DNA from: Sorangium cellulosum So0157-2
GTDB lineage: Bacteria > Myxococcota_A > Polyangia > Polyangiales > Polyangiaceae
Assembly (NCBI RefSeq): GCF_000418325.1
Contig: NC_021658.1
Span: 11,174,001-11,238,000, forward strand
Reading direction: 5' to 3'
Length of the DNA: 64,000 nt
Shown here: piece after piece, positions 6,680 to 60,727 of the stretch
How the letters are laid out: the number at the start of each line of letters is the position of its first letter
How positions within the stretch are numbered: position 1 is the stretch's first letter
Notes under the pieces: generated by a model
The model's database searches: none
What the model was told of the DNA's origin: nothing
What the model saw: only the letters and a program-made list of their open reading frames with translations
Made by a program: the position numbers and the translations under genes

Positions 6680-6864
6680 CCCAGGACACCGAACGAGTTG
6701 AAACGTCGGCGCGTTCGCCGCCGGGGCCCGCGCGAATGACGCCCGCGGAAACCGCGGCGCTGCTCGGATCACTGCGGGGCCTCTCGGGCATATAGTCTGA
6801 CGACGATCGGCCGTGTGCTTCGGGCACCGCCGCGGGTCTGCACCCAGGAGCGAGAATTCTAGTG

Positions 6865-8487
6865 ATGAACAGGGCACGAGGTTCGACCACCGCCATCTTG
6901 CTGGCATTTTTCTTCATGGCTTGCGGTCCTTCGACCAGCGCGACGGAGCCCGAGGGCTCGGGCGGCTCGGGGTCGGGGGCGGGCGGCCCGGGGTCGGTGG
7001 CGGGGAGCTCGACGAGCACGGGCGGCTCGACCGGGTCGGGGGGAACAGACGCGAGCGCCTCGACCGGGTCGGGGGGCGCCGGCGGCGAGCCGCCCGGAGA
7101 CGGCGGCGCTGGCGGCTCGTCCACCGGCGGCGGGCCCCCCGTCGTCGAGCCCACGTTGATCACGTCCGGTCCGAACGATTACTGGAAGACAGGAACGCCG
7201 ACGGAGGTGACGAGCGGCAATGCCGATGTGACCGTCGACGAGGCGACGACGCACCAGCGATGGGACGGGTTCGGCGGCACCTTCAACGAGGTGGGCTGGA
7301 ACGTCCTCTCGATGCTCGGCGAGGCGGAGAGGGCGCGAGCCATTGAGCTCCTCTTCGACAAGCACGAGGGCGCGGCGTTCGCCTACGGGCGCATCCCGAT
7401 CGGGGCCAGCGACTACGCGATGGACCGCTACACCCTCGACGAGACGCCGAACGACACCGCGATGGCGAGCTTCTCCATCGATCGGGACAAGGAGAGGCTG
7501 ATTCCGTACATCAAGGCGGCGCTCGTCGTGAGGCCCGGCCTCCACCTCTGGGCCAGCCCCTGGACGCCGCCCACCTGGATGAAGAGCAACGGCGCCTTCG
7601 ACGGCGGCCGCATGAAGGACGACGCGAGCACCTTGCAGGCGTATGCCCTGTACCTCGCGAAGTTCGTGGAGGCGTACGCCGGAGAGGGCATCACCATCGA
7701 GGCGGTTCACCCCCAGAACGAGCCGAACTACGAGACGAGGTACCCGAGCTGCACCTGGACGGGGGCGCTCATGGCCAAGTTCATCGGCACGTATCTGGGG
7801 CCGACGTTCGCCGACCGGGGGCTCACGGCGCAGATCTATCTCGGCACGATGTCCAACAACGAAAGCGGGAAAGACGGGGCGATCATCAGCGCCGTGACCG
7901 GCGACGCCACCGCGATGGGGTACGTCAAGGGATTCGGGCTGCAGTGGAACATGATGAGCAGCGCGTCCGGCTTGAGATCGCGCAATCTGCCGATCGTGCA
8001 GACGGAGCACAAGTGCGGCAACTACCCCTGGAACCCCACGGGCTCACCGCCGTTCGACGCGCAGAAGGCGCCGAACGATCACGCGTACGCCGAGGAGAGC
8101 TGGGGGCTCATCCGCGACTGGATCAAGGCAGGGGTGACCTCGTACAGCGCCTGGAACATGGTGCTGGACACGGCGGGGAAGAACCTGGACTCAGAGCGGC
8201 CGTGGCCCCAGAACGCGCTGCTCACCGTGGACACGGCGGCGAAGACGCTGAACGTGACCCCCGTCTACCACGTCTTCCGCCATGTCTCCGAGTACGTCGA
8301 TCCCGGGGCGACGCGCGTCGCCACGACCGGCGGCGATGCGCTGGCCTTCAAGAACCCCGACGGGAGCATCGTCACGATCCTGTACAACTCCGGCAATGCG
8401 GCGAAGATGACCGTCCTCGATGTGGCCGGGAAGAAGCTCCAGTTCAGCGTCCCTGCCCACGGGTGGGCGACCGTCAACTGGACGTGA
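6865..8487 (+). CDS. GH30-family glycoside hydrolase lipoprotein
   Basis: This is a 540-residue lipoprotein. The signal ends FFFMAC (Cys20) and is followed by a Gly/Ser/Thr-rich linker (about 25-95). The catalytic (beta/alpha)8 domain has the family sequence QRWDGFGGTFNEVGWNVLS, the acid/base Glu286 in HPQNEPNYE and the nucleophile Glu381 in VQTEHKCG, followed by the usual beta-sheet C-terminus. GH30 enzymes cleave beta-glucans, glucosylceramide or xylan. The exact substrate cannot be read here, but a polysaccharide target fits a surface-exposed lipoprotein. The ATG at 6865 lies 14 nt after AGGAG. The GTG at 6862 would add one residue. Confidence 0.9.
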   Translation: MNRARGSTTAILLAFFFMACGPSTSATEPEGSGGSGSGAGGPGSVAGSSTSTGGSTGSGGTDASASTGSGGAGGEPPGDGGAGGSSTGGGPPVVEPTLITSGPNDYWKTGTPTEVTSGNADVTVDEATTHQRWDGFGGTFNEVGWNVLSMLGEAERARAIELLFDKHEGAAFAYGRIPIGASDYAMDRYTLDETPNDTAMASFSIDRDKERLIPYIKAALVVRPGLHLWASPWTPPTWMKSNGAFDGGRMKDDASTLQAYALYLAKFVEAYAGEGITIEAVHPQNEPNYETRYPSCTWTGALMAKFIGTYLGPTFADRGLTAQIYLGTMSNNESGKDGAIISAVTGDATAMGYVKGFGLQWNMMSSASGLRSRNLPIVQTEHKCGNYPWNPTGSPPFDAQKAPNDHAYAEESWGLIRDWIKAGVTSYSAWNMVLDTAGKNLDSERPWPQNALLTVDTAAKTLNVTPVYHVFRHVSEYVDPGATRVATTGGDALAFKNPDGSIVTILYNSGNAAKMTVLDVAGKKLQFSVPAHGWATVNWT

Positions 8488-11690: not shown

Positions 11691-12664
11691 GGAAACAAAT
11701 TCTACACGCAAAAATAATATTGAGCAGTTCCAAGCACTTAGAGGCTACGCCCGGCCCGGGCGGCGGTCAGCGGGCGGAGACGGGGGACGCTGTGTGCGGG
11801 CCATCGGGGGCGCCCGTGCGGTTCTGGTCGCGGATCATCGGGGGCGCGGTTTCGGAACGCGCTGCGCCTGGGGCAGGAGCTACGGCGGCGCCGAGCCCGA
11901 CGTCGGGAGCTTCCACCGCGCGCCGCTGCGTCTCCAGAAGGCAGGGCCCCCGAGTCAAGTGCGCCGGACCCGTCCGTCGCTTGTTGCGAGCGCAGGCGTC
12001 CAGGCCGCGCGTGGACGCGGCACGGCAGGATTGTGAGCCGCGCGGCGCGGCCCGCCCTTGCCGCGCTGGCCCCGTCGATCGAACACGCGCGGGTGGTCAG
12101 CGACGCGATCGAGCTCTTGCTCCCTGTGCTCTTCCGCTCCGCTCGCCGGAGTACCGCACACGGTGATCGAAGTGGCGGCGCTCCTGCGCGATCTGCATCG
12201 CCTGCGCGAGGCGATCGGATTAGACGCGGCTCTGCAGCTCGACGACCCCGAGACGCCCGCCGGGGCAACCGCGGCCACGCCCGCGAGCAGCGGCGGGGGC
12301 TGCGGGCTCATCCGGGCTGCGGGGGCCTGCGGAACCCCACCGAGGCCGTCCGTTGCCGGTCTCGTAGCTGCCCGCCGACGGCGCCGCCACGTGCGGTGCT
12401 CGCGGGCGGCACGGACGCGCGAGCGACGTCGTGCGGCTCCAGCCGCGTGAGCGCTAGCGCGTCGTCGTCGCTGATCGCGCAGGCCACCGCCAGGCGCCGC
12501 GCTCGCGGGCGCGTGGCCGCGCGAGCGACGGCGTGCAGCTTGGCTGGCGCACGCTCTGGACGGTACGATCCCAGCCCAGTGTGGTGTTCTCGTCTAGATT
12601 CCGTTTGACGCCGATCCTGTGATCGGAAGAATGGCTCGTGTGTCCCTGGGAGCAAGAGGCCATG
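11691..12664. other. Left end of the element, no confident gene
   Basis: The first 50 bases are AT-rich (AAACAAATTCTACACGC, AAAAATAATATTG), unlike the kinase gene, and the rest is GC-rich. A coding-like fragment can be read in shifted frames (LAPSIEHARVVSDAIELLLP at about 12068-12127, then VIEVAALLRDLHRLREAIGL at about 12163-12222). This may be a frameshifted relic, but nothing identifiable was found. Confidence 0.4.
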
Positions 12665-13012
12665 ATGGCAATACGTCTTCGTTCGAAGATAGTCCGCCCC
12701 TGTCTCGTTCATATCCTTTCCGCTACGGCAATATCTCAAACTGGTTGCACCATCCTAGATGAAAAGCAAGCGCCGACATGCATGGACCCATCTCCTCAGT
12801 GTCAAGCGTTGTGTGGGCAAGAAGACGTGTTCCCTCAGACAGTTGGCTGTGGGAGAACGACGCCGCTTCAGAACCAATTCGTAAAAGCATTAACCACAAA
12901 GACATGCAATCAATGGCGCGAAGCACTACCCACCGATGGCAGCAGCTATCTGACCATTACTCCTCAAATGATCGGGATAACACCCGTCGCAAAGAATCCG
13001 TGCCTGTACTAA
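12665..13012 (+). CDS. Small Cys-containing exported protein of unknown function
   Basis: This is a 115-residue protein starting at the second of two adjacent ATGs, with AAGAGG five bases upstream. The N-terminus is basic then hydrophobic (RLRSKIVRPCLVHILSATAI) and leads to SQTGC, a weak lipobox. The mature part has eight further Cys, with CMDPSPQCQALCG as a cluster. No family is recognised. Codon use is AT-richer than in the flanks. It is the first gene of a three-gene group whose products all look envelope-located. Confidence 0.6.
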   Translation: MAIRLRSKIVRPCLVHILSATAISQTGCTILDEKQAPTCMDPSPQCQALCGQEDVFPQTVGCGRTTPLQNQFVKALTTKTCNQWREALPTDGSSYLTITPQMIGITPVAKNPCLY

Positions 13013-13107
13013 TCCACGTCTCTCCTGGAGACAGTCCTGGATAGTTGCTTTTTCATAGCAAATAACAGCGAGACAAGGTGCAATCACCATCAACCCATCC
13101 AATCGTC

Positions 13108-13743
13108 ATGGAACTCTTATCGAAGCCGACGAAGCGAATTGGATTCGGACTCATCGCCGTTGTCGCATTGGTAGGAGCATATACCTTGGGGCGAACTTCG
13201 GTAGAGGTTCCTGAAAAATTTCAAACTCACCAGGACACGGCCAGCACAAGTGGCACCGATCTTCAATCAATCATAAGTGCTACTCAGGAAAGGCTTATTA
13301 GCTGCGAAAACGCTCTCTATCGCCGCGAACAACCACTTCACAAAAAGGAAGAGCAGCCTCACATCAAACAAGACGAGCCTACCGCATCATCCCACTCGGA
13401 GGGCTCGACAGAATGTGGCACCATATCGCAAAAGAAAGAACTGCAAATGATGGCCAAAGACTGTAGAGAATTCAGGAAATCGTTTGATGCGTATAAGGCA
13501 ATACTAGAGAACGACAAGATCGACTGCGAGACGATCTTAGCAATTCGAGATTTGGCCCAAAGCCAACATTCGACTTGCGTCGCGATCATAACAGCCAACG
13601 AAGACGCCTCGTATCAAAACCTAATGAGAGACCCTAACATCAGCGAGTTGGTAGAAGACGCGTACACTTTCAGAGATGATGAATATAGCGGACTTAGCGT
13701 CAATGGCCTAGTGAAAAACAAGAGGTGTCTAGTTGAGCAGTAA
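13108..13743 (+). CDS. Membrane-anchored coiled-coil-like protein of unknown function
   Basis: This is a 211-residue protein if started at the ATG at 13108; a GTG at 13078 would add ten residues. One N-terminal transmembrane helix (IGFGLIAVVALVGAYTLG) anchors a Lys/Glu/Gln-rich, mainly helical extracytoplasmic domain with scattered Cys (CENAL, CGTIS, CREF, CETI, CVAI). No family is recognised. The stop overlaps the next start as TAATG, so the two genes are translationally coupled. Low G+C marks it as imported. Confidence 0.65.
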   Translation: MELLSKPTKRIGFGLIAVVALVGAYTLGRTSVEVPEKFQTHQDTASTSGTDLQSIISATQERLISCENALYRREQPLHKKEEQPHIKQDEPTASSHSEGSTECGTISQKKELQMMAKDCREFRKSFDAYKAILENDKIDCETILAIRDLAQSQHSTCVAIITANEDASYQNLMRDPNISELVEDAYTFRDDEYSGLSVNGLVKNKRCLVEQ

Positions 13744-14522
13744 TGAGATCACGCATCACTCGGGGAGAACTTGGTGCGTTGCCGGCGTTCATGTTAGATC
13801 AACTAGCTTTGCGCATTTTGTTGGGGCTTGGGGTCATTACTGTTAGTGAACTGGCATCGGCGCAAGAGAAAGAGTCTCAAGGAGCATTCTATTGGGACGG
13901 GTTCCATATTAATGGAATCTTTCAAGCAAAGCTTCCTCTTCTCTTGAGGTTAGGAGTTTCATACAGCGGAGGAACAGCTCCGGGGGCTGTCCATGTAGCC
14001 ATGCTGAACTTTGGTCAGACCTTGAGTTTGGCGAAGGAGCTCAACGTTGGCTACCTTCTGGGTGTGGGATTAAGCAAGGAAAGGATGTCGACCGTAGAAG
14101 ACAAGGTATTGGGGATACATGCCACGTTCGAAACCGGACCATTTCGGGCAAGCGCGGCCACGAACCTTCAATTCTATGCATTGGGCGAGGCTATTATTCC
14201 GATGTTCACTACGGTCTTGAGAGGACAAGGAGCGATTTTCCGGACCACGCATGTCGACGCTTTCGTTGGCGGAGATCTTTTTCTTCGCAATCTGAACGTC
14301 CAGTTCGGCGCCACAACCGGATTTCGATTCAGGGACGTCGTACTCTTTGACCGAAACATAAGCGGACTCTTGTCGGCGACGGTGATGAATACGTGGGCCA
14401 GTGTCCCTGCACATGGATTAAGCTGGGCGGCCTACGTGGAGCCCCGTCTTGGGGTTGTTGTCGATCTAGAGACCAAGGAAGAAGAAAAGCGTGATCAGAT
14501 TTACGAGTATGGGCAATACTGA
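13743..14522 (+). CDS. Putative outer-membrane beta-barrel-like protein
   Basis: This is a 259-residue protein. The N-terminal signal-like helix (ALRILLGLGVITVSELASA, cleaved near AQEKES) is followed by alternating amphipathic strands (HINGIFQAKLPLLLRLGVSY, VHVAMLNFGQTL, NVGYLLGVGL, FRASAATNLQFYALG, VDAFVGGDLFL, VQFGATTGFRFRDVV). The pattern suggests an outer-membrane or surface beta structure. The C-terminus is charged and does not end in the usual aromatic barrel signal. It overlaps the preceding gene by one base. Together the three genes could span the envelope, but that is inference. Confidence 0.6.
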   Translation: MRSRITRGELGALPAFMLDQLALRILLGLGVITVSELASAQEKESQGAFYWDGFHINGIFQAKLPLLLRLGVSYSGGTAPGAVHVAMLNFGQTLSLAKELNVGYLLGVGLSKERMSTVEDKVLGIHATFETGPFRASAATNLQFYALGEAIIPMFTTVLRGQGAIFRTTHVDAFVGGDLFLRNLNVQFGATTGFRFRDVVLFDRNISGLLSATVMNTWASVPAHGLSWAAYVEPRLGVVVDLETKEEEKRDQIYEYGQY

Positions 14523-14898
14523 TCTTGAGCGTTCGCGGAGCAGGGCGCGATGTCAATCTCGATGACCGATGCAGCGGACATCGGAGCAGCAACGAGAGCG
14601 CGGCCTTTGCTGTCTCCTCAAGCCGTGCGGTCGCTTCGATCGGCTCCTGTGCCGATTCGATTTGTACACGTGACGTCGTCCCACACTGGGACGGAGGCCT
14701 CTCGACCCAGCGAGCGTGCCGGGGCGCGCCGGGCTGGGCAAGGGTGCGCTCGCTGCGCGAATCACGCCCGCGCGGCCGCCCTTGCTCCGCCCGGCGCGCC
14801 CCGGCGGCTGAGCCCTCGCCAGACCACCGCCACGGTGTGCCTGGGGCCCGAGACCAGCACTGGTCGCGACCTTCCATTAAGCCATCACAAATGCCCGT
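14523..14898. other. Convergent intergenic region, nothing recognised
   Basis: This lies between the plus-strand AT-rich operon and the end of the minus-strand lipoprotein operon. Composition changes from about 50% to high G+C within it, marking a junction of two cargo segments. No gene, hairpin with U-tract or attachment site was found. Confidence 0.4.
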
Positions 14899-15756
14899 TT
14901 ACCGATCGCAGCACACGACGTGTATGTCCCCTGGCTCAAGTGTACCGCTTTCAATCTTGGAGACTGAAGGAATGCATGTGCCGGGCTCATTCTCCGTGAA
15001 CGCGGACCGCATCGCCGCGAGTGGCGCGTTGTCAGCCCTGCTGCAAAGCGGAGAGTCGCTGCTGGAAATGACCGTGTTGCCAAGCTCGTCGAAGCAGCGA
15101 ACGTCCTGGTAGAGCGTGGTCTGCACCGTGCACCTTCCGCCGGTCGGTGCGCCACAGGAGCAGGGCGAGCAGGTACGGGCGTCAATGACGGTGGAAAATT
15201 CATGCCGGAACGGGTAGCCCTTCCAGCATTCTCCGTTGTCCTGCGGAGGATAGCAAAGGCGGGCTGCGGCAGGGGCCCAGTTTGGAGTCTTGGGTTTACA
15301 AGCCCTTACGTCGGCCAGGCTGCGGCGCGATGGTTCCGATGCGGGTGCCACGGGGGCGCAAGGGGCCAGCACCGGCGGCTCAAAGGTCACCGACGCGAAG
15401 GCGTCGCTCTGGATGGGCGTGGCAGCCGGCGCGCAAGAGCCATCCCAGGATCCGCTGGCCTCCACGGCCCCTACGTCGTCCTCGCCGGGGCACACCGAGG
15501 CGTGTGCGGTTACCTTCGACGGCAGCATGCAAGCGGCTGGGCCGCACTGGCATGGCTCACATTCGTCGGGCGCATCCGTCCCGACCAATCCCTCCCACAA
15601 CACCTCGTCTCCGAAAAGGCAGTCAGTATCGCCGCCATGGTTCGCAAAGCGAACGTAGATTTGGTCGCGATCGTCTGGAGGCGGCAAATCATAAGATTCC
15701 GACGAGCAGCCGATGGGGGCCAAAGCGACCAACGTGAACAACACAGCCGAGCGCAT
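14899..15756 (-). CDS. Cys-rich lipoprotein (tandem paralogue)
   Basis: This is a 285-residue protein. The lipoprotein signal LVALAPIGC is followed by a Ser/Asp-rich stretch. The body has about twenty Cys in two modules with CxxC-type clusters (CEPCQCGPAAC and CSPCSCGAPTGGRC) and ends HVVCCDR. The same modules, in the same order, occur in the IS-interrupted gene upstream (17920-18387 plus 15773-16216), showing a tandem duplication. No enzymatic motif is seen. It is probably a disulfide-stabilised surface protein. The ATG at 15756 is preferred; the GTG at 15768 is an alternative. It is the last gene of the minus-strand operon starting at 20949. Confidence 0.7.
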   Translation of the reverse strand: MRSAVLFTLVALAPIGCSSESYDLPPPDDRDQIYVRFANHGGDTDCLFGDEVLWEGLVGTDAPDECEPCQCGPAACMLPSKVTAHASVCPGEDDVGAVEASGSWDGSCAPAATPIQSDAFASVTFEPPVLAPCAPVAPASEPSRRSLADVRACKPKTPNWAPAAARLCYPPQDNGECWKGYPFRHEFSTVIDARTCSPCSCGAPTGGRCTVQTTLYQDVRCFDELGNTVISSSDSPLCSRADNAPLAAMRSAFTENEPGTCIPSVSKIESGTLEPGDIHVVCCDR

Positions 15757-24941: not shown

Positions 24942-26996
24942 ATGATTGAGCGATTGGGCGACTTGGGCGACCTCTTTCGGCAGTTCCGCGAGATGAAGAA
25001 GCTGACGCAGGAGGGCCTTGCAGAACGCTGCGGGGCGACTGTAAACCGCACGCAGATCGCGCTGCTGGAACAGGGACGACGTCTGCCCAAGCCCGAAAGT
25101 CTTCGAGCGATTGCCGAACAACTTGGGATCCCCGGGGAAACATGGGCACCGTTCGCGAGGGATGAGTCCCATCTTCGTCAGCAGTTCGAGGCATCCGTCG
25201 GGGAGTTGGTGGGTCGGGTGGTTGGGCTCCGGTCAATGGATATCGAGTCAGTTCACGCCGCCGAGGCGACTACTAAAACGCTATTCTCGGGAATGCTCAC
25301 CGCAACACAGTCTTTTGACACGCTTAACAGCATACTTCTATTTTACGCTGTCCCCCGCATGAGTCGAGCTTTCTTCGATCGGTACCTTGGGGGCACCGCC
25401 TTTCAGTCGATTGAACTCTTCGACGCTGCTATTCGGCGGTTTCACGAAGAGGCCATTCGCCTTTTTAGCACTTTTGCCGAAGCTTATCGCAAGATGAACG
25501 CTTCGAATAATCTATCGACGATCTTGGAGCCTCTCGCAGCGAGAGACCTCAGCGCCTACACAGATCGTACGGTGTGGGACGCTCCAGATCCTGCAAGCCT
25601 TGAGGGTAACAGGATCCTTCCGATTCCGGAGCACAAGCTTGAGTTCCTGGGCTACATCTCGGCCGCAAAATACAAGGCACAAAAGAGAAAACGCGAAACG
25701 CTCGCCAAGTACCTTCGTGAGCTTGCGAAAGAGGTGCGGGCAAAAGGTCCTCATGCCTTGGATGAATTCGGCGAAAAGCGGCGCCGTAAGATCGACTCAT
25801 TGATGCGTGAGTTGGGGTCTACGATGGCGCACACTCCCATCTCGCCCCTCTTTGTGTCTAACGCCGCGAATCTTGAGAACGAAGCAAATAGAATTCTCCG
25901 CGACGAAAAGGATGAAGCGGAGATGGAGCGCATCCAGGCACAGGCACTGTCGAATTTGTCCCATTACATCAGCGCCGATCACATGGACGTCTATGTGGCG
26001 ACCTCCATGCGAAGCACGTCAGACTTCGTCTCCGTCAACCGTTTTGTAGCTCGCTTGTTCCGCCACGACCAGATCGCCCCGCTGCGCCTTCGCTATTTCA
26101 ATCCAACACAGTCATGGATTGAGGATCGCGTGGCCAAAGGCTTGGTCGAAGCGTTGATGCTCAGACGCGCGAGTGTTACTCTTTACATGGCGCAGAAGGC
26201 TGACTCATTCGGCAAGGATTCGGAGGCGTCGGTGGCACTGGGCCAGGGCAAGCCCGTCATCGTTTATGTTCCGAAGCTTGTCTTGCCGTCTGCCGGTTTG
26301 GACTCTGAGTCGTTGATGGCGGAGACCGACCTTCGACTGCGTGAGATGTTGCTCGCACAAGGGCGCACTGCAGAAGATCTTGATGACCTCGACCACGACG
26401 GTCTGTTCACCGAGGCGCTAACGGCGAGAATCATAGCTCTGTCGGATAAGCAGATTACCGAAATCGTGCACCTGCATTGGGCTGACTTTGCTCTGCTAGA
26501 CGAGTCCGAGCGGATTCGTGGAAAAGATGTCAAAGAGAAGGAGGCTAAAGACCAGGATACCGATCAAAAGAAAGACGAAGACCAGATGAGACGCGCCACG
26601 CGGCTTCGCGAAGAATACACAAAGTTCGTTAGTGCGATCACTCGTGGTGAGCTTCCGGAGCTCACATCGGAATTGCGCGTTGAGGTCGAGCGCATACTGG
26701 TTGCGACGACTGTAGGGTTTGAGATTAGACGAGCAAGGCTCTTCAAGGAGGTCCATCCGCTCGCGCTTCAGATCATTCTTAGCACGGGTGTTCTAAACGG
26801 AATTCTGGTAAGCAGATCGGTTGACTCGTGCGCATATCTTTTGCGTGGATTGCTCGAGAATAAGCTTCAGCTTGAACTCGAGCCTGATGATACCAATTAC
26901 CGATTGCTTGAGAAGACGACCAGATCAACGGTCAGGGTCATCGCTCGGAACACGCTCCTCAACAATGCGTTGGACGGGCTATATGATCGCCTGTGA
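24942..26996 (+). CDS. HTH (XRE) - nucleoside deoxyribosyltransferase-like protein, putative defence effector
   Basis: This is a 684-residue protein; AGGAGG precedes the ATG. An N-terminal XRE helix-turn-helix (about 8-65: FREMKKLTQEGLAERCGATV, then QIALLEQGRRLPKPESLRAI) is followed by a long helical region (about 80-340). A Rossmann-like domain begins at about residue 347: MDVYVATSMRSTSDF, then FNPTQSWIEDRVAKGLVEAL, then KDSEASVALGQGKPVIVYVP. Glu428 in SEASVALGQGKP sits where nucleoside 2-deoxyribosyltransferases and TIR-like NADases carry their catalytic Glu. A charged linker (KEKEAKDQDTDQKKDEDQ) and a helical C-terminal domain follow. DNA-binding fused to an N-glycosidase-like domain recalls antiphage effectors. 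That role is inferred from architecture and island location. Confidence 0.75.
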   Translation: MIERLGDLGDLFRQFREMKKLTQEGLAERCGATVNRTQIALLEQGRRLPKPESLRAIAEQLGIPGETWAPFARDESHLRQQFEASVGELVGRVVGLRSMDIESVHAAEATTKTLFSGMLTATQSFDTLNSILLFYAVPRMSRAFFDRYLGGTAFQSIELFDAAIRRFHEEAIRLFSTFAEAYRKMNASNNLSTILEPLAARDLSAYTDRTVWDAPDPASLEGNRILPIPEHKLEFLGYISAAKYKAQKRKRETLAKYLRELAKEVRAKGPHALDEFGEKRRRKIDSLMRELGSTMAHTPISPLFVSNAANLENEANRILRDEKDEAEMERIQAQALSNLSHYISADHMDVYVATSMRSTSDFVSVNRFVARLFRHDQIAPLRLRYFNPTQSWIEDRVAKGLVEALMLRRASVTLYMAQKADSFGKDSEASVALGQGKPVIVYVPKLVLPSAGLDSESLMAETDLRLREMLLAQGRTAEDLDDLDHDGLFTEALTARIIALSDKQITEIVHLHWADFALLDESERIRGKDVKEKEAKDQDTDQKKDEDQMRRATRLREEYTKFVSAITRGELPELTSELRVEVERILVATTVGFEIRRARLFKEVHPLALQIILSTGVLNGILVSRSVDSCAYLLRGLLENKLQLELEPDDTNYRLLEKTTRSTVRVIARNTLLNNALDGLYDRL

Positions 26997-27211
26997 CCGA
27001 ACCGCGGTTCCTTGATTGAGCACATCATAACGACCTGCGATGACTAGTACACGTCCAACTGCTGCCGGGCGCGCTTCGTGCAAGGGCAGAGCCGCGAGCC
27101 GTTGAACACACTGAAGCTATGAATCGGAGCTGTCTAACGGAATAAATCCATGCATGCGTACAGGCTGCCTGTGTGAGTTGGCGTTCAGGGAGATAAGAAA
27201 CAGGTGCGTTC

Positions 27212-54756: not shown

Positions 54757-55656
54757 TCACTCCGCCGACAGCTTGGCTCGTGCGACCCTCTGCACGTACG
54801 GGTCCACGTCCTCGCTGGCATCGCGCCAGTGTCGCAAGGAGCTTCCCGGGTCGAGCGTGGCCAGCGCCGTGAACGCCTCCGCGCGGATCCTGGCGTCGGA
54901 GTGCCCTTGCGCCAATTTCTCCAGGACGTTGATGGTCGCCCCGTCGCCCACCATGGAGGCGAGCCTGCACAGGAAGACGAAAGGGCTGTAGTCGAGCCGC
55001 TCGACCGACGAGGAGATCACCCCTCGCTCCACGTCGAACCAGTACTGCTTGGTCGACTGCACGGCCTCCGGATCGGCGACGAGCAGGTTGATCGATATCG
55101 AAAAATCGTCCGGCGGCAGCTGCGTGTGGATATCGCGGTTCGCCCGGTAGAACATCACCTTCCCGTTGGTCAGCCGCGTCCTCTCCAGGAACCGTATGTC
55201 CACCTGCTCACCCTCGAACCCGACGGTCCGCTCCGGATCGTACTCGTAGATGTCTGTCTCGTATCCAGGGCCCCAGTAACCAACGGTGAGAAAATCGGCG
55301 TTGTGGTCGTGCGGCATCTGGTACGCGAAGAGGCTCCTCTCCCAGTCGGCGGGCGCGTCGGCGACGCAGCGCGGCCACATGTTGGCCCGGAGCCGGAACC
55401 CGGGGCCGCCGCCCAGATCGACGATCTGCTGCGAGAAATTGCTCGACTGCTGATAGGCGTCGAGCGGCTGCGCCTCGCAGATCTGGCGGTTCACGAGCTC
55501 GATGAGGAAAGATTTGTTGTTCGACAACATCCTGAGGTAGCGGGCCGCGTCGTCCATGCGTTCCCGGCGCGAGATGCCCTTGATCCCGCTCAGGAGGCGG
55601 ACGCACTCGGGCAGGTCGATCACATCATTCGTATTCGCGTCGATGGTCAAGGTCAT
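54757..55656 (-). CDS. HEAT-repeat protein B of a small-peptide operon
   Basis: This is a 299-residue cytoplasmic protein. The first about 200 residues are an unrecognised domain with SFLIELVNRQICEAQPLDAY, then SLFAYQMPHDHNADFLTVGY and WGPGYETDIYEYDP, a His/aromatic-rich stretch that could bind a metal or oxoacid as in cupins. The last about 80 residues form HEAT-like helices (ARIRAEAFTALATLDPGSSL, then EDVDPYVQRVARAKLSA). It is a distant paralogue of the gene at 55672, with the same order of regions. It starts 15 bp after that gene, with GGAGCACG as ribosome-binding site. Confidence 0.7.
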   Translation of the reverse strand: MTLTIDANTNDVIDLPECVRLLSGIKGISRRERMDDAARYLRMLSNNKSFLIELVNRQICEAQPLDAYQQSSNFSQQIVDLGGGPGFRLRANMWPRCVADAPADWERSLFAYQMPHDHNADFLTVGYWGPGYETDIYEYDPERTVGFEGEQVDIRFLERTRLTNGKVMFYRANRDIHTQLPPDDFSISINLLVADPEAVQSTKQYWFDVERGVISSSVERLDYSPFVFLCRLASMVGDGATINVLEKLAQGHSDARIRAEAFTALATLDPGSSLRHWRDASEDVDPYVQRVARAKLSAE

Positions 55657-55671
55657 GGCGTGCTCCAGATG

Positions 55672-56502
55672 TCATCCCAGGCGAGCGAGGGCCTTCTTCG
55701 CTGCTCCTCGGATTCGCGGGTGCGGGTCGTCGACGGCCCCGGCCAGGCGCGCTCGACCGGCCTCGGCGTCGACGGCGAAGAGGGCCTGCAGCGCGGACCA
55801 GCGGACGAAATGACTCTTGTACTCGGAGATCCGAAGGAGGCTCTCGATGTTCCCCCGCCCCGTGACCTCCCCGAGGAGCTTGGTGGTGTAAAAGAGCCTG
55901 TAGGCCGAGCTGTTCGGGCAGATCGCCTGCATGGGCATGAGGGTGCCCGGGTCGTACTGCCACGCGAAATCGAGGAACGGCTTGGACTGGAGCAGGACCA
56001 GCGGGATCGGCCTGTCGACGGACCGCAGCCGGAAGACCTCCCACCCGGCCGAGACCTCCGAGACGTCCATCGATCGAAGCACCTGGTCCGGCTGCTTCTC
56101 GAGCATGGCCCGACCATCGAAGACGTCGTTCCGATACGGCTCGACGTGCCTGTATCGCTCCAGCACCAAGCGGGCGTCGTCGGACGCGGACGCGAAGCCC
56201 ATCAACACGTGGGATGGATAGCTGAGCAGCTTGTCGTCATCGACGGTGGGATCGAGCAGCAGAATGTCGATCTGCACCCCGCTCGGCAGCATGACGCGGG
56301 CGGAGGAGCCGGTCGCGGCCTGGATCACCTCCCCCTGCCCTGAGAGGCAGTATCCGAGCTGAGTGCTCAGCAGGTCCGCGAGGAAACCCGAACCGAGGAG
56401 CCGCTCGAAATGAGGTCGGCACGTCCAGAAGGTCGACGGTTCCTCGATGTTGTACGTCTCTGAGATCGCAGCGGAGAAGCTGCTCAACTGGGCCGTGATC
56501 AT
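55672..56502 (-). CDS. HEAT-repeat protein A of a small-peptide operon
   Basis: This is a 276-residue protein. Unknown N-terminal domain (GSGFLADLLSTQLGYCLSGQ, then GVQIDILLLDPTVDDDKLLS, then DDARLVLERYRHVEPYRND), then AWQYDPGTLMPMQAICPNSS and a C-terminal HEAT-like region (YKSHFVRWSALQALFAVDAE, then AGAVDDPHPRIRGAAKKALA). The C-termini of A and B align around (V/I)R..A..AL..(V/L)D, indicating ancient duplication. HEAT proteins usually mediate binding, so a peptide-recognition or scaffold role is possible. No family is recognised. Confidence 0.7.
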   Translation of the reverse strand: MITAQLSSFSAAISETYNIEEPSTFWTCRPHFERLLGSGFLADLLSTQLGYCLSGQGEVIQAATGSSARVMLPSGVQIDILLLDPTVDDDKLLSYPSHVLMGFASASDDARLVLERYRHVEPYRNDVFDGRAMLEKQPDQVLRSMDVSEVSAGWEVFRLRSVDRPIPLVLLQSKPFLDFAWQYDPGTLMPMQAICPNSSAYRLFYTTKLLGEVTGRGNIESLLRISEYKSHFVRWSALQALFAVDAEAGRARLAGAVDDPHPRIRGAAKKALARLG

Positions 56503-56593
56503 GGTGCTCCTGCTCCCTCTTGGTCGAAGCGCGCGCCGCTGCCCACGTCGTCGTCGACGCGAGCAACGGCGCGGCGGACTCAGGATCCTCCGA

Positions 56594-56788
56594 TCACTGC
56601 GGATCCGGGGACTTGCGATAGCTGGTGTCGACGGCGCCGGGGACCATGGCCAGCACGATCACCACGAGCAGGACGCCGCCTGCGACGCTGGTGACGGGGG
56701 TGGCCGGGGCGATGGGCTCATCGAGGTCCTCCAAGACGAACTGCTGGGCGCGGACGGGGGACGAGGACACGGCTTCGCTGGTGTGCAT
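56594..56788 (-). CDS. 64-residue peptide with leader-like acidic motif and hydrophobic tail
   Basis: AGGAG lies eight bases before the ATG. The N-terminal half is polar and ends in an acidic, leader-like motif (AQQFVLEDLDEPIAPATPVT). The C-terminal half has one hydrophobic helix (SVAGGVLLVVIVLAMVPGAV) and a short tail, DTSYRKSPDPQ. A leader motif followed by a hydrophobic core is the layout of several ribosomally made peptides, but a simple small membrane protein is equally possible. It lies between the 117-residue gene and HEAT protein A on the same strand. Confidence 0.65.
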   Translation of the reverse strand: MHTSEAVSSSPVRAQQFVLEDLDEPIAPATPVTSVAGGVLLVVIVLAMVPGAVDTSYRKSPDPQ

Positions 56789-56858
56789 GATATAGGCTCC
56801 TTGTCTCAAACGAGAAAGCGTGAATGATTCTCAACCGCTCGCAGACCACCCCCGCGGT

Positions 56859-57212
56859 TCAGGGGAGCACTTCTATCGATGCGAGCCCGTGCTTGCGCGC
56901 GTCGAGGAGCAGCTCCTCGTCGGTCATCTGGACGCCGTGAAAATCGTGATATTCCTTGGCCAGCTTGATGAACGCGTGATTCGCCGACGGAGACGCGCCC
57001 GCCGCGGCGTTCCTCGCCCCGCTGGAGGCGTGGCGGACGTTCGGGCTCAGCGTCGGATCGGCGCTCGCGAGCTCGGCCAGCCGCTGGTTCAGGTTGTTCA
57101 TGGCCTCGATATAGACAGCGGCGAGCCTGAGGACCTCGGCGTCCTTCACGGCACGCTCGGACACGAATTTGTACCACTCTCGCGAACGCTGAAGAGGGTG
57201 AACGATGGTCAT
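56859..57212 (-). CDS. 117-residue protein of unknown function
   Basis: The ATG at 57212 has AAGGAGG seven bases upstream; the ATG at 57218 is too close to it. The protein is mostly helical: SREWYKFVSERAVKDAEVLR, then AVYIEAMNNLNQRLAELASA, a Ser/Ala-rich loop, then ANHAFIKLAKEYHDFHGVQM and TDEELLLDARKHGL. It has no signal peptide or Cys and no family is recognised. It is the first gene of the four-gene minus-strand operon (117-residue protein, 64-residue peptide, HEAT A, HEAT B). Confidence 0.65.
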   Translation of the reverse strand: MTIVHPLQRSREWYKFVSERAVKDAEVLRLAAVYIEAMNNLNQRLAELASADPTLSPNVRHASSGARNAAAGASPSANHAFIKLAKEYHDFHGVQMTDEELLLDARKHGLASIEVLP

Positions 57213-58030
57213 GTACATGCCTCCTTGATGGTTCAGTCAGAGCCAATGGCCCTTCTACGTCACGAGCGCGCCAACGGCGATGTCGGCAAACCGGCCGACA
57301 TGAATCGTGGAATTGGAATCGACGTCGCTTGCGATGCCGCCGTTCGCTGCCGCTCCATGGCGGGCAGCACGAGCTCGCAAGCGCCGGGCCAGCCCGGCCG
57401 AGAGGAGCACGTCGGGATCGGGGGAGCCGATCGTGGCGGGGTCTCTTCGCCGGCGGGCAGCAGGGAACGGCGAAGCGATGACGGAGCTCGAGCCGGCGCG
57501 CCCAGCGCGGCGATGCCGCGGGCGACCCGGACCCGCTGAGCCGGCAACAACTTGCCGGCAAGGTGTTGCCCGCGCCGGGCGGCAACGGCTTGCCGGCGAG
57601 GCGGCGCCCTCGCGGAGGCGGACGCTGGAGGGCCGGGAGGTGCGCCCCGCTGGAGGCTTCCGCCGAGCGAGATGTGGTCGGGCGCCGTGGCCCCGCGCCC
57701 TGCTCGGCGTCGACGGTGCAGGCGAAGGCCCTGGGCACGCGACCGCCCGAAATCACGCCGCTGCCCACCAGGCTGGCGGCCAGGACTTCGCCGATAGGTC
57801 CTCGGGCGGTCCGGTCGCGCGCGCTGCACCGCCGCGGCGGGCCGCGGCTGCCGTCCGATGGCCGTCCGGACGCCCGCGACCACGGCGCGGGCGGCGAGTT
57901 CATCGGTCTCCGCTGGTCGAGGTCTTCCTCCGAGACGGAGAGCAAGGAGCCCCGGCGCACGGAGGGCCTCTCCGTCAAGGCGTGGACAATTCGACTTGTC
58001 CTGCCCTGACCCTGCGGTACGCTGCCCGCC
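57213..58030. other. Promoter region and GC-rich filler between divergent units
   Basis: No gene is convincing on either strand. A cluster of GCCGGCAAG/TTGCC-type inverted repeats lies at 57542-57600 (CCGGCAACAACTTGCCGG, then a second arm set CGGCAACGGCTTGCCGG), able to form nested hairpins. The regions next to 57213 and 58030 must hold the promoters of the two divergent units. Confidence 0.4.
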
Positions 58031-60727
58031 ATGATCCGCGAGATCATGTTCCACCCCGAGTTCACGACGCCGTTCGGGCTCCAGCCATCGGGCCCGATCG
58101 GGGACCTGGGACGGATCGTCATCCTCGTCGGCCAGAACGGCGCAGGGAAGAGCCGCTATTTGCAGCTCGTCAAGGATCTGTTGGAGACCGCGCCGCGGGC
58201 CACCCAGGAGCATGCCACGTTGACGGAAGACCTCCTCCGGCTCAAGGCACAGCTCGCCGCGACCGGCGCTGATGCGCTGCCACCGGAGCGACACGTTCAA
58301 GCGACGCGGGAGGTGGAAACGAAGACGCAGCGGCTCGCCTTCGTGACTCGGCTGTTGGCGTCAGGAGGGGTCCTCGTCGATGGCCCCGGCGGCCTCGTCC
58401 CGCCGACGGCGCAGGATATCGGTATCGACCTGACGATTCGCCCCTTCGGCCTGAGCGAGGCAGGCGCATCGCGTCGCGACCCGCTCCGTGAGGCATACAG
58501 GTCTGCGCCGGACATCCTCGAGAGGGCAGCGCGCGCCCTGTTCAATGCAGAGCACCCCGCGCTCGCGAAGACGCCGGAGGTCGTGGAGTCTGCCCGCGAA
58601 GCCGCGCGCCTCAATGATATCCTCGCGGCGTTGCTCGACAAACAAATTCAACCCGATGTGGACATGACGAGCGGAGCAGTTCATGCTCGGCTCGGAGAGC
58701 GCCGCTTCGACACCGTCGAGCTCTCCTCCGGTGAGCGGGTCCTGTTGACCTGGGCCGTGACGCTGCACCGGGAGGCGTCGCAGCTCCGCGACGCCGTTCT
58801 GTTCATCGACGAGCCCGAGGTACACCTCCATCCTGCGGTGAGCATACGGCTCCTATCTCGCCTCTTCGACGATAAGGTCCTCGGTCCGCGCGGACAGGTA
58901 TGGATAGCAACGCACTCACCGGTCGTGCTCCTGGCCGCGGACGCGGCGCGAGTGCTGCTGGTGGAGCAGGGAGCCCTGCGCTGGAGTGACGTGTCCTCCC
59001 CGCAGGTCCTGGACGGCTTTTTCCCCGGGACTCCTCCGCAAGTGCGCTTCGCCCCCCGGCTCCCCGTGGGGGGCTCCGATTTTCGGAAGCTCCGCAGGGA
59101 CCATCTGCGCTACGTGGACAAGACGGCGTTCATCGCCGAGGTACTCCAGAATCCGGCCGAGGTGCTGCTCTTCTCACGCCCGCGGCGCTTCGGCAAGACC
59201 TTGAACCAGTCGATGCTACGCTACTTCCTCGAGAAGACGGGCGAGGAGAGGAGCGACCTATTCAAAGGTCTTTCAATCTGGGATGACAAGGAGTCTCGAC
59301 AGCACTTTCAGGGATATCCGGTCGTCGCTTTGACGTTCAAGGACGTGAAAGCGAGCACCTGGACGGAGTGCCGAAACACCATGGCGTTGACCATCGCCAA
59401 TGCTTTCGAAGAGCATGGCTACGCGGTCAAGACGGGTGCGCTCTCGGAGCGGGAGGCTGAGCGCTTCGACGCGATCATGAGGAATACAGCAGACAACGCC
59501 CAGCTCCGAGACGCCCTGCGGCTCCTCTCGGAAGCTCTCTCGCGCCAGCACCACCAACGCGTCGTCATCCTGATAGACGAATACGACACGCCGATCCACA
59601 GCGCCTACCTTCACGGATATTACGACGAGGCCATCGAGTTCTTTCGTAACTTCCTCTCCGGGGGACTCAAGGACAACCCGAACCTGTTCAAGGGGGTGCT
59701 GACCGGCGTGCTGCGGGTGGCCAAGGAAAGCCTGTTCTCCGGGCTGAATAACGTCGTGAGCTACTCCCTGCTGAGGCCGGAGTTCGCCAGTCACTTCGGC
59801 TTCACCGAAGAGGAGGTGATGCAGCTCTTGAGAGAGAGCGGGGAGGATAATCGGCAGGAGGAGCTACGAGCCTGGTACGACGGCTACCGCTTCGGTGACG
59901 ATACGATCTATAACCCGTGGTCCGTCGCGAATTATTTGAACCAGCGGGACCGCATGCCGCGGCCGTACTGGACAGATACGAGCGACAACGAGCTCCTCAA
60001 GCGGCTCCTCTTCCACGAAGGAGCCGGTCTCCACGGCGAGTTGCAAGCGCTCCTGCGGGGCGAGCCGATTCACACGATTATCGCTGAGGACGTGGTCCTC
60101 CGGAATATCGGAGACAGGCATGACGCAGTCTGGAGCCTCCTGCTCTTCTCGGGATACTTGACGCCCTCTTCCAAGCCCAGCGCCGACGCCGAACAAAGGC
60201 TCGACGTGAAGATCCCCAACAAGGAGATCCTCCATGCGTTCGAGAGACTGGCGCGGGAGAACCTGGCGGAGCGCATGGGCGGCGAGGAGGAGGTCAGGAA
60301 GCTGACCCAGGCGCTCATGGACGGGGACGCGCGGACATTCGAAGGCCTTTTGGAACGATACCTGCTCAACTGCATGTCGTCGCAGAGCGCGGCGGGAAGA
60401 GCTCCGGAGATGTTTTACGAGGGCTTCCTCTTGGGGCTCCTCGTGCGTCTGCGCGCGGACCACCACGTGGAATCCCAGCCAAACGCAGGGCTGGGGAGGG
60501 CCGACATCCTGATTACCCCCAGGAGCTCGGGGCGACCGGGCGTGGTGCTGGAGCTGAAGACCCTCAAGGATGGGGGCGACGTCGAGCCGGCGCTCGACGC
60601 GGGTCTGCAGCAAATCGAGGACCGGCGATATACCGCGAAGCTGGAGGAGCGCGGGGCCCATCCTATCCACGCATACAGCGCGGTCTTCGATCGCCAGCGC
60701 GTCTGGGTGCGGAAGCGAACCATGTGA
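58031..60727 (+). CDS. Fusion of an ABC/OLD-type ATPase with an AAA-like ATPase and PD-(D/E)XK domain
   Basis: This is an 898-residue protein. Part 1 (1-340) is a complete ABC-type AAA: Walker A GQNGAGKS (34-41), a helical insertion (about 60-220), signature LSSGER (231-236), Walker B VLFIDEPEVHLHP (Asp260, Glu261) and THSP. Part 2 (345-820) is an AAA-ATPase-like domain normally found alone: VGGSDFRKLRRDHLRYVDKT, Walker A-like RPRRFGKT, VVILIDEYDTPIHSAY, WYDGYRFG. Part 3 is a PD-(D/E)XK nuclease-like end with RADILITP (Asp825), then VVLELKTLK (Glu841, Lys843). Each part keeps its key residues. The fusion resembles defence ATPase-nucleases, but no partner gene is adjacent. Confidence 0.85.
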   Translation: MIREIMFHPEFTTPFGLQPSGPIGDLGRIVILVGQNGAGKSRYLQLVKDLLETAPRATQEHATLTEDLLRLKAQLAATGADALPPERHVQATREVETKTQRLAFVTRLLASGGVLVDGPGGLVPPTAQDIGIDLTIRPFGLSEAGASRRDPLREAYRSAPDILERAARALFNAEHPALAKTPEVVESAREAARLNDILAALLDKQIQPDVDMTSGAVHARLGERRFDTVELSSGERVLLTWAVTLHREASQLRDAVLFIDEPEVHLHPAVSIRLLSRLFDDKVLGPRGQVWIATHSPVVLLAADAARVLLVEQGALRWSDVSSPQVLDGFFPGTPPQVRFAPRLPVGGSDFRKLRRDHLRYVDKTAFIAEVLQNPAEVLLFSRPRRFGKTLNQSMLRYFLEKTGEERSDLFKGLSIWDDKESRQHFQGYPVVALTFKDVKASTWTECRNTMALTIANAFEEHGYAVKTGALSEREAERFDAIMRNTADNAQLRDALRLLSEALSRQHHQRVVILIDEYDTPIHSAYLHGYYDEAIEFFRNFLSGGLKDNPNLFKGVLTGVLRVAKESLFSGLNNVVSYSLLRPEFASHFGFTEEEVMQLLRESGEDNRQEELRAWYDGYRFGDDTIYNPWSVANYLNQRDRMPRPYWTDTSDNELLKRLLFHEGAGLHGELQALLRGEPIHTIIAEDVVLRNIGDRHDAVWSLLLFSGYLTPSSKPSADAEQRLDVKIPNKEILHAFERLARENLAERMGGEEEVRKLTQALMDGDARTFEGLLERYLLNCMSSQSAAGRAPEMFYEGFLLGLLVRLRADHHVESQPNAGLGRADILITPRSSGRPGVVLELKTLKDGGDVEPALDAGLQQIEDRRYTAKLEERGAHPIHAYSAVFDRQRVWVRKRTM

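What the first reader, a model, noticed from the sequence alone, without database searches (positions are those of the whole stretch)
54757..57212. Candidate undescribed peptide system: two HEAT-repeat proteins, a 64-residue peptide and a 117-residue helical protein
The four genes are co-oriented and closely spaced with good ribosome-binding sites. The peptide has an acidic leader-like motif (FVLEDLDEP) before a hydrophobic segment, and two diverged paralogues with HEAT C-termini could recognise or modify it. None of the four belongs to a family I recognise, and no known RiPP enzyme class is present.
Basis: inference. Interest (0 to 1): 0.72.

Follow-up and report, generated by a model that had tools for sequence, protein, structure and literature searches.

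The report
Rare cupin–HEAT gene pair beside peptides
Four small genes in a soil bacterium include a pair of undescribed proteins that recurs, in the same order and beside tiny peptide genes, on plasmids of two marine bacteria, which suggests (but does not prove) a new way of processing a small peptide.

Summary
The four genes are real, co-oriented and close together (minus strand). Neither the 64-aa peptide nor the 117-aa protein has a detectable relative. The two larger proteins are not just "HEAT proteins": HEAT is a weak C-terminal tail of about two repeats. Upstream of it, protein A (54757-55656) keeps H116-x-H118 and H177 in all four homologues found, with constant spacing, suggesting a metal-binding cupin of the cysteine-dioxygenase (three-histidine) type; profile evidence for that is weak (hhalign E 0.01-0.02) and the structure model poor. 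Protein B (55672-56502) has no His cluster. The B-A pair, in that order, recurs on an Alteromonas plasmid and, as a Tn3-type passenger, on a Vibrio plasmid, each time beside one or two tiny ORFs. The Alteromonas copy is flanked by YknWXYZ-like and ABC-2 transporters, as peptide-toxin clusters are. A was found in no other of 379 Myxococcota sampled. Best reading: an undescribed peptide-processing cassette in which A is a metalloenzyme and B its inactive partner. This is inferred; no modification is shown and the peptides share no significant similarity across species.

The parts
56859..57212 (-). 117-aa helical protein of unknown family (first gene; alternative start at 57218 gives 119 aa)
   Evidence: ORF with AAGGAGG 7 nt upstream of the 57212 ATG, GC3 0.83; no relative in Pfam/NCBIfam, in 96 related genomes beyond E 0.008, or in plasmids
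56594..56788 (-). 64-aa peptide: acidic N-terminal half (FVLEDLDEP), one hydrophobic segment (VAGGVLLVVIVLAMVPGAV), no cysteine; candidate precursor peptide or small membrane protein
   Evidence: ORF with AAGGAG, GC3 0.91; max Kyte-Doolittle-19 2.62; no homologue
55672..56502 (-). Protein B, 276 aa: N-terminal domain without a histidine cluster, HEAT tail (res ~218-275)
   Evidence: HEAT_2 E 6e-4; homologues in Alteromonas plasmid (E 4e-10) and, without HEAT tail, in Sorangium relative G001 (E 6e-9); Vibrio homologue linked through Alteromonas B (E 4e-5)
54757..55656 (-). Protein A, 299 aa: probable three-histidine metallo-cupin (W94, H116-x-H118, H177-x-Q179) plus HEAT tail (res ~235-294)
   Evidence: Homologues: Alteromonas plasmid (E 1e-40), Vibrio plasmid (E 1e-8), metagenomic provirus-flanking contig (35% identity); invariant residues in A4; spacing H118-H177 = 59 in all four; CDO_I profile hhalign E 0.010-0.018

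Best explanation
A peptide-processing cassette with an undescribed enzyme pair. The small peptide(s) encoded next to the pair are the substrate. A is a metal-dependent oxygenase-like enzyme of the cysteine-dioxygenase (three-His cupin) type that modifies the peptide. B is a diverged, catalytically dead partner that, with the short HEAT tails, holds or delivers the peptide. In Alteromonas the product is exported, and self-protection given, by the adjacent YknWXYZ-like and ABC-2 transporters; in Sorangium export would use an unlinked transporter. Shown: the genes, the conserved B-A order in three bacteria, the invariant histidines in A and their absence from B, small ORFs beside all three B-A pairs seen, and transporter linkage in Alteromonas. 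Inferred: metal binding, catalysis, the peptide as substrate, B as partner, and antibacterial or signalling use of the product.
For: B-A order conserved in Sorangium, A. stellipolaris plasmid CP013927 and Vibrio sp. ED002 plasmid, with stop-start overlap in the last two. Tiny ORFs with good ribosome sites adjacent in each: 64 aa here; 38 and 41 aa between the permease and B in Alteromonas, unannotated; 59 aa overlapping the end of A in Vibrio. The two Alteromonas ORFs resemble each other at p 0.013 (uncorrected, one of ten comparisons; LKNE...TS(N)VD), as peptides sharing a leader would. Alteromonas locus: Yip1/YknW-like (NF052650 E 1.6e-6, far below its cut-off), HlyD-type adaptor, MacB-type ATPase, FtsX-type permease, then B-A, then ABC ATPase and ABC-2 permease; YknWXYZ is the efflux pump that protects Bacillus from the SDP peptide toxin (PMC4887032). 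A: invariant W94, H116, H118, H177, Q179 in four homologues as little as 23% identical, constant spacing; alignment to CDO_I relatives is colinear from the W-strand through HDH; best Foldseek matches of the poor model are RmlC-like cupins, non-significant.
Against: No homologue of the 64-aa peptide or 117-aa protein exists in anything searched, and peptides differ between loci. No transporter, protease or immunity gene next to the Sorangium cassette or the Vibrio pair. The CDO link is weak: 1 of 200 column-shuffled CDO profiles scored higher, Pfam and the PDB give no sequence hit. The Sorangium peptides contain no cysteine, so ordinary thiol dioxygenation of them is impossible. A could not be folded confidently (pLDDT 38 and 46) and B was not folded.
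Confidence: 0.4

Rival explanations
1. The B-A pair is a conserved enzyme or binding complex acting on something else (small molecule, tRNA or cell protein); the neighbouring small ORFs are unrelated and the 64-aa product is an ordinary single-span membrane protein.
For: Small ORFs are not homologous between the loci; the Vibrio 59-aa ORF is not hydrophobic; the 64-aa product looks like a simple one-helix membrane protein with R and K after the hydrophobic segment; CDO-like cupins mostly act on small molecules (established knowledge). G001 has a solo B-like gene between sugar-metabolism genes with no peptide seen.
Against: Small ORFs with good ribosome sites sit on the same strand next to the pair in all three loci; the Alteromonas locus has the transporters of a peptide toxin cluster.
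Confidence: 0.3
2. A mobile selfish or defence-type module (toxin-antitoxin, immunity or anti-phage), with the small ORF as toxin or antitoxin.
For: Rare, patchy distribution: plasmids in two marine bacteria, Tn3 passenger beside restriction-modification genes in Vibrio, an A homologue in DNA flanking a provirus; absent from other Polyangiales; here next to an AAA/PDDEXK gene.
Against: No PADLOC match for any member apart from a weak HEAT hit; Alteromonas context is export, not defence.
Confidence: 0.17
3. A and B are non-catalytic sensors or regulators of the cell envelope (cupin as ligand sensor, HEAT as scaffold) controlling the membrane peptide.
For: HEAT repeats are usually binding scaffolds; B lacks the histidines; the 64-aa product is membrane-like.
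Against: Three histidines of A are strictly kept at constant spacing, which points to a metal site; Vibrio A lacks the HEAT tail.
Confidence: 0.08

Closest known systems
Cysteine dioxygenase family (Pfam PF05995 CDO_I; three-His cupins, with ADO/PCO and ergothioneine dioxygenase)
   Same: A: invariant W before an H-D/N-H motif on the next strand, later third His, no conserved cupin Glu, helical N-terminus
   Different: No Pfam CDO hit even at E 10 in the members scanned; catalytic Tyr of the x-L-H-V-Y strand replaced (NLL/NLI/NIM/ALV); insertion between W and HxH; HEAT tail; partner B
HEAT_2 repeat proteins (PF13646)
   Same: C-terminal ~60 residues of A and B
   Different: Only about two repeats, below the Pfam cut-off here; the main domain is something else; Vibrio A has none
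RiPP and peptide-toxin clusters (e.g. Bacillus SDP with YknWXYZ; epipeptide yydFGHIJ)
   Same: Small peptide gene(s), modification-type proteins, YknWXYZ-like plus ABC-2 transporters in the Alteromonas relative
   Different: No known RiPP enzyme, leader-binding domain or protease; no transporter in the Sorangium or Vibrio loci; product unknown
Lanthipeptide, sactipeptide, MNIO and other RiPP classes
   Same: Only the general layout (precursor plus enzyme)
   Different: No LanB/M, radical-SAM, YcaO, MNIO or RRE match in any protein scanned

Membership tests
Cysteine dioxygenase (CDO_I) family | Pfam PF05995 above cut-off | tested here: not met
   No CDO_I match for any of four A homologues at E <= 10
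Cysteine dioxygenase (CDO_I) family | Three-histidine metal site HxH...H | tested here: met
   H116, H118, H177 invariant in four homologues at fixed spacing; metal binding itself untested
Cysteine dioxygenase (CDO_I) family | Catalytic Tyr in the final strand (LHxY) | tested here: not met
   That position reads NLL, NLI, NIM, ALV in the alignments
Cysteine dioxygenase (CDO_I) family | CDO-type cupin fold | tested here: inconclusive
   hhalign E 0.010-0.018, beaten by 1 of 200 shuffles; model pLDDT 46; cupins are top Foldseek hits but at E 0.2
RiPP biosynthetic cluster | Precursor peptide with conserved leader and variable core | tested here: inconclusive
   No homologue of the 64-aa peptide; two Alteromonas ORFs share an LKNE/TSxVD start, p 0.013 uncorrected
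RiPP biosynthetic cluster | Known modifying enzyme or RRE | tested here: not met
   None in Pfam or NCBIfam scans of the locus
RiPP biosynthetic cluster | Peptide transporter or protease in cluster | tested here: inconclusive
   Present in Alteromonas, absent in Sorangium and Vibrio
RiPP biosynthetic cluster | Modified peptide product | not testable with these tools
   Needs mass spectrometry
HEAT-repeat proteins | HEAT_2 above gathering score | tested here: not met
   18 and 20.4 bits versus 27.7; Alteromonas B passes with 36.7

The most novel reading that the evidence does not exclude
A new class of ribosomal-peptide modification system whose enzyme is a heteromeric pair of HEAT-tailed cupins (one three-His catalytic, one dead), spread at low frequency between myxobacteria and marine gammaproteobacteria on plasmids and transposons.
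Probability: 0.27. Interest if true: 0.8.

Novelty: new variant of a known kind. Interest (0 to 1): 0.5.

Why it matters
If the pair modifies the neighbouring peptide, it would add an enzyme class (a CDO-like cupin working with an inactive partner) that family-based RiPP mining would not see, and would explain unannotated loci on mobile elements. Even if not, it defines a conserved, unnamed two-gene family with a probable metal site that can be tested by expressing three or four small genes.

Tried and rejected
Family scans of Pfam, NCBIfam, PHROGs and PADLOC gave only weak HEAT. Two genome-contig scans with single proteins found nothing. Own-motif scans of viral contigs: the first pattern had a mistake (one codon left out) and found nothing; the corrected one found one true A homologue; a second motif gave that plus four chance hits rejected by HMM. 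Weak matches of P0003/P0004 and of the HEAT tail in relatives were treated as chance or generic HEAT. A single-sequence model (pLDDT 38) was not used; a two-row model (pLDDT 46) gave only non-significant cupin hits; HLA/CD1 hits there are taken as artefacts of the poor model. The Alteromonas and Vibrio rows were left out of folding because the tool admits only window sequences and loci from the scans it names. Homology of the 64-aa peptide with the Alteromonas or Vibrio small ORFs was tested by shuffling and not supported. Phage records hold no A homologue. Literature searches for HEAT plus cupin plus RiPP found no description.

Full report
WHAT IS THERE. The window lies in a single 14,782,125-bp contig, the size published for Sorangium cellulosum So0157-2 (PMC3696898). 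The four genes run on the minus strand: a 117-aa protein (57212-56859), a 64-aa peptide (56788-56594), B of 276 aa (56502-55672) and A of 299 aa (55656-54757), with gaps of 70, 91 and 15 nt. Ribosome-binding sites are good for the first two and fair to weak for B and A. Codon-position GC (GC3 0.83-0.91, GC2 0.42-0.48) marks all four as coding; the 0.8 kb upstream shows no such bias. Neighbours are a DUF5122 beta-propeller protein on one side and an AAA ATPase/PDDEXK fusion on the other, transcribed away. No transporter or protease lies next to the cassette.

NOT SIMPLY HEAT PROTEINS. Pfam sees only HEAT_2, below cut-off, in the last ~60 residues of A and B. NCBIfam, PHROGs and PADLOC add nothing useful. 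A and B are not alike by BLASTP (E 1.0); their profiles align only through a 'YD..G' linker and the HEAT tail at E 0.016, so common ancestry is plausible but not shown.

RELATIVES OF A AND B. Tblastn of A against plasmids finds A. stellipolaris CP013927 (35.5% over 89%, E 1e-40) and Vibrio sp. ED002 NZ_CP080241 (23%, E 1e-8). In both, the gene just upstream, overlapping A by a few bases, is a B homologue (Sorangium B versus Alteromonas B E 4e-10; Alteromonas B versus Vibrio B E 4e-5). So the order B-A is conserved across very distant bacteria, though B itself scored too low for a direct hit in plasmids. A fourth A homologue lies in the non-viral end of IMG/VR contig 3300046462_000434, beyond an integrase. 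No other A was found in 379 sampled Myxococcota, nor a second copy in this genome. Of 184 Polyangiales, only one same-genus genome has a B-like gene, alone and without the HEAT tail. Patchy distribution, plasmids and transposon carriage point to horizontal transfer (inference).

A IS PROBABLY A THREE-HISTIDINE CUPIN. Four A homologues, down to 23% identity, keep W94, H116, H118, G126-Y127, G129, G131-Y132, G165, H177, Q179-L180-P181, and the distance H118-H177 is 59 in all. Glu at the usual cupin position is not conserved, which leaves three His, as in cysteine dioxygenases. Seven CDO_I proteins from Myxococcota have the same order W - HDH/HSH - H with 40-53 residues between (the W printed for row s1 there, W105, is a later non-conserved Trp, the conserved one being W94). 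Profile comparison aligns the W strand and HDH in register, E 0.010-0.018. This is weak: 1 of 200 column-shuffled profiles scored higher, there is no PDB sequence hit and no Pfam CDO hit. A two-row AlphaFold model is of low confidence (pLDDT 46) but gives N-terminal helices, a run of strands over 77-215 and C-terminal helical pairs; its top Foldseek matches are RmlC-like cupins at E 0.2, not significant. I put the CDO-like fold at about 0.7. The CDO catalytic Tyr is missing, so A is not filed as a CDO. B has no such histidines and would be a dead partner (inference).

SMALL ORFS AND CONTEXT. In Alteromonas two unannotated ORFs (38 aa, L023:6621-6737; 41 aa, L023:6836-6961) with strong ribosome sites lie between an FtsX-type permease gene and B. 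They share LKNE near the start and then TS(N)VD (p 0.013 by shuffling, one of ten comparisons). Around them are a Yip1/YknW-like protein, HlyD-type adaptor, MacB-type ATPase and permease, and downstream of A an ABC ATPase and ABC-2 permease. YknWXYZ exports and protects against the SDP peptide toxin in Bacillus (PMC4887032). In Vibrio, B, A and a 59-aa ORF that overlaps A are passengers of a Tn3-type element with 71-nt terminal inverted repeats. In Sorangium the 64-aa peptide (one hydrophobic segment, no Cys) and the 117-aa protein precede B. None of these small products has a homologue in what was searched, and the 64-aa peptide is not significantly like the Alteromonas ones (p 0.08, or 0.20 when the hydrophobic pattern is kept).

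HOW IT MOST LIKELY WORKS. Shown: a conserved B-A module with small ORFs beside it, and peptide-toxin-type transporters in one case. Inferred: A is a metal-dependent enzyme, B its inactive partner, the small product the substrate. Thiol dioxygenation of the Sorangium peptides is excluded because they contain no cysteine, so another oxidation would be needed, or a different substrate. Confidence 0.4; the main rival is that A/B act on something else (0.3).

VERDICT. No published description was found in the open-access library searched, which does not hold most subscription papers.

Noticed in passing
window 58031-60727 (+): 898-aa protein with an ABC-type AAA_21 ATPase half joined to AAA-ATPase_like (PF09820) and PDDEXK_9; the genome has four other PF09820 genes, one of them split between two frames.
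   Followed up: partly
L023:6621-6737 and 6836-6961 (CP013927.1 66742-66858 and 66957-67082): Two unannotated small ORFs with a similar start (LKNE...TS(N)VD) inside a YknWXYZ-like plus ABC-2 transporter cluster on an Alteromonas stellipolaris plasmid.
   Followed up: partly
L024:2963-9464 (NZ_CP080241.1): Tn3-family element in Vibrio sp. ED002 with 71-nt terminal inverted repeats and a third, internal repeat copy (7157-7204) just before the B-A-59aa passenger, as if one element had been inserted into or joined with another.
   Followed up: partly
L002:1411-2187 (G001, same genus): Solo B-like gene without HEAT tail and without an A partner, between a polysaccharide-related gene and an aldose-epimerase-like gene (identified by eye).
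   Followed up: partly
window ~12000-15000 and ~25000-27000: Segments of 53-57% G+C in a ~70% G+C window, possibly recently acquired.
   Followed up: no
L027:3-884: A homologue in host DNA next to a provirus integrase on an IMG/VR contig; the gene for B, if present, lies beyond the contig end.
   Followed up: yes
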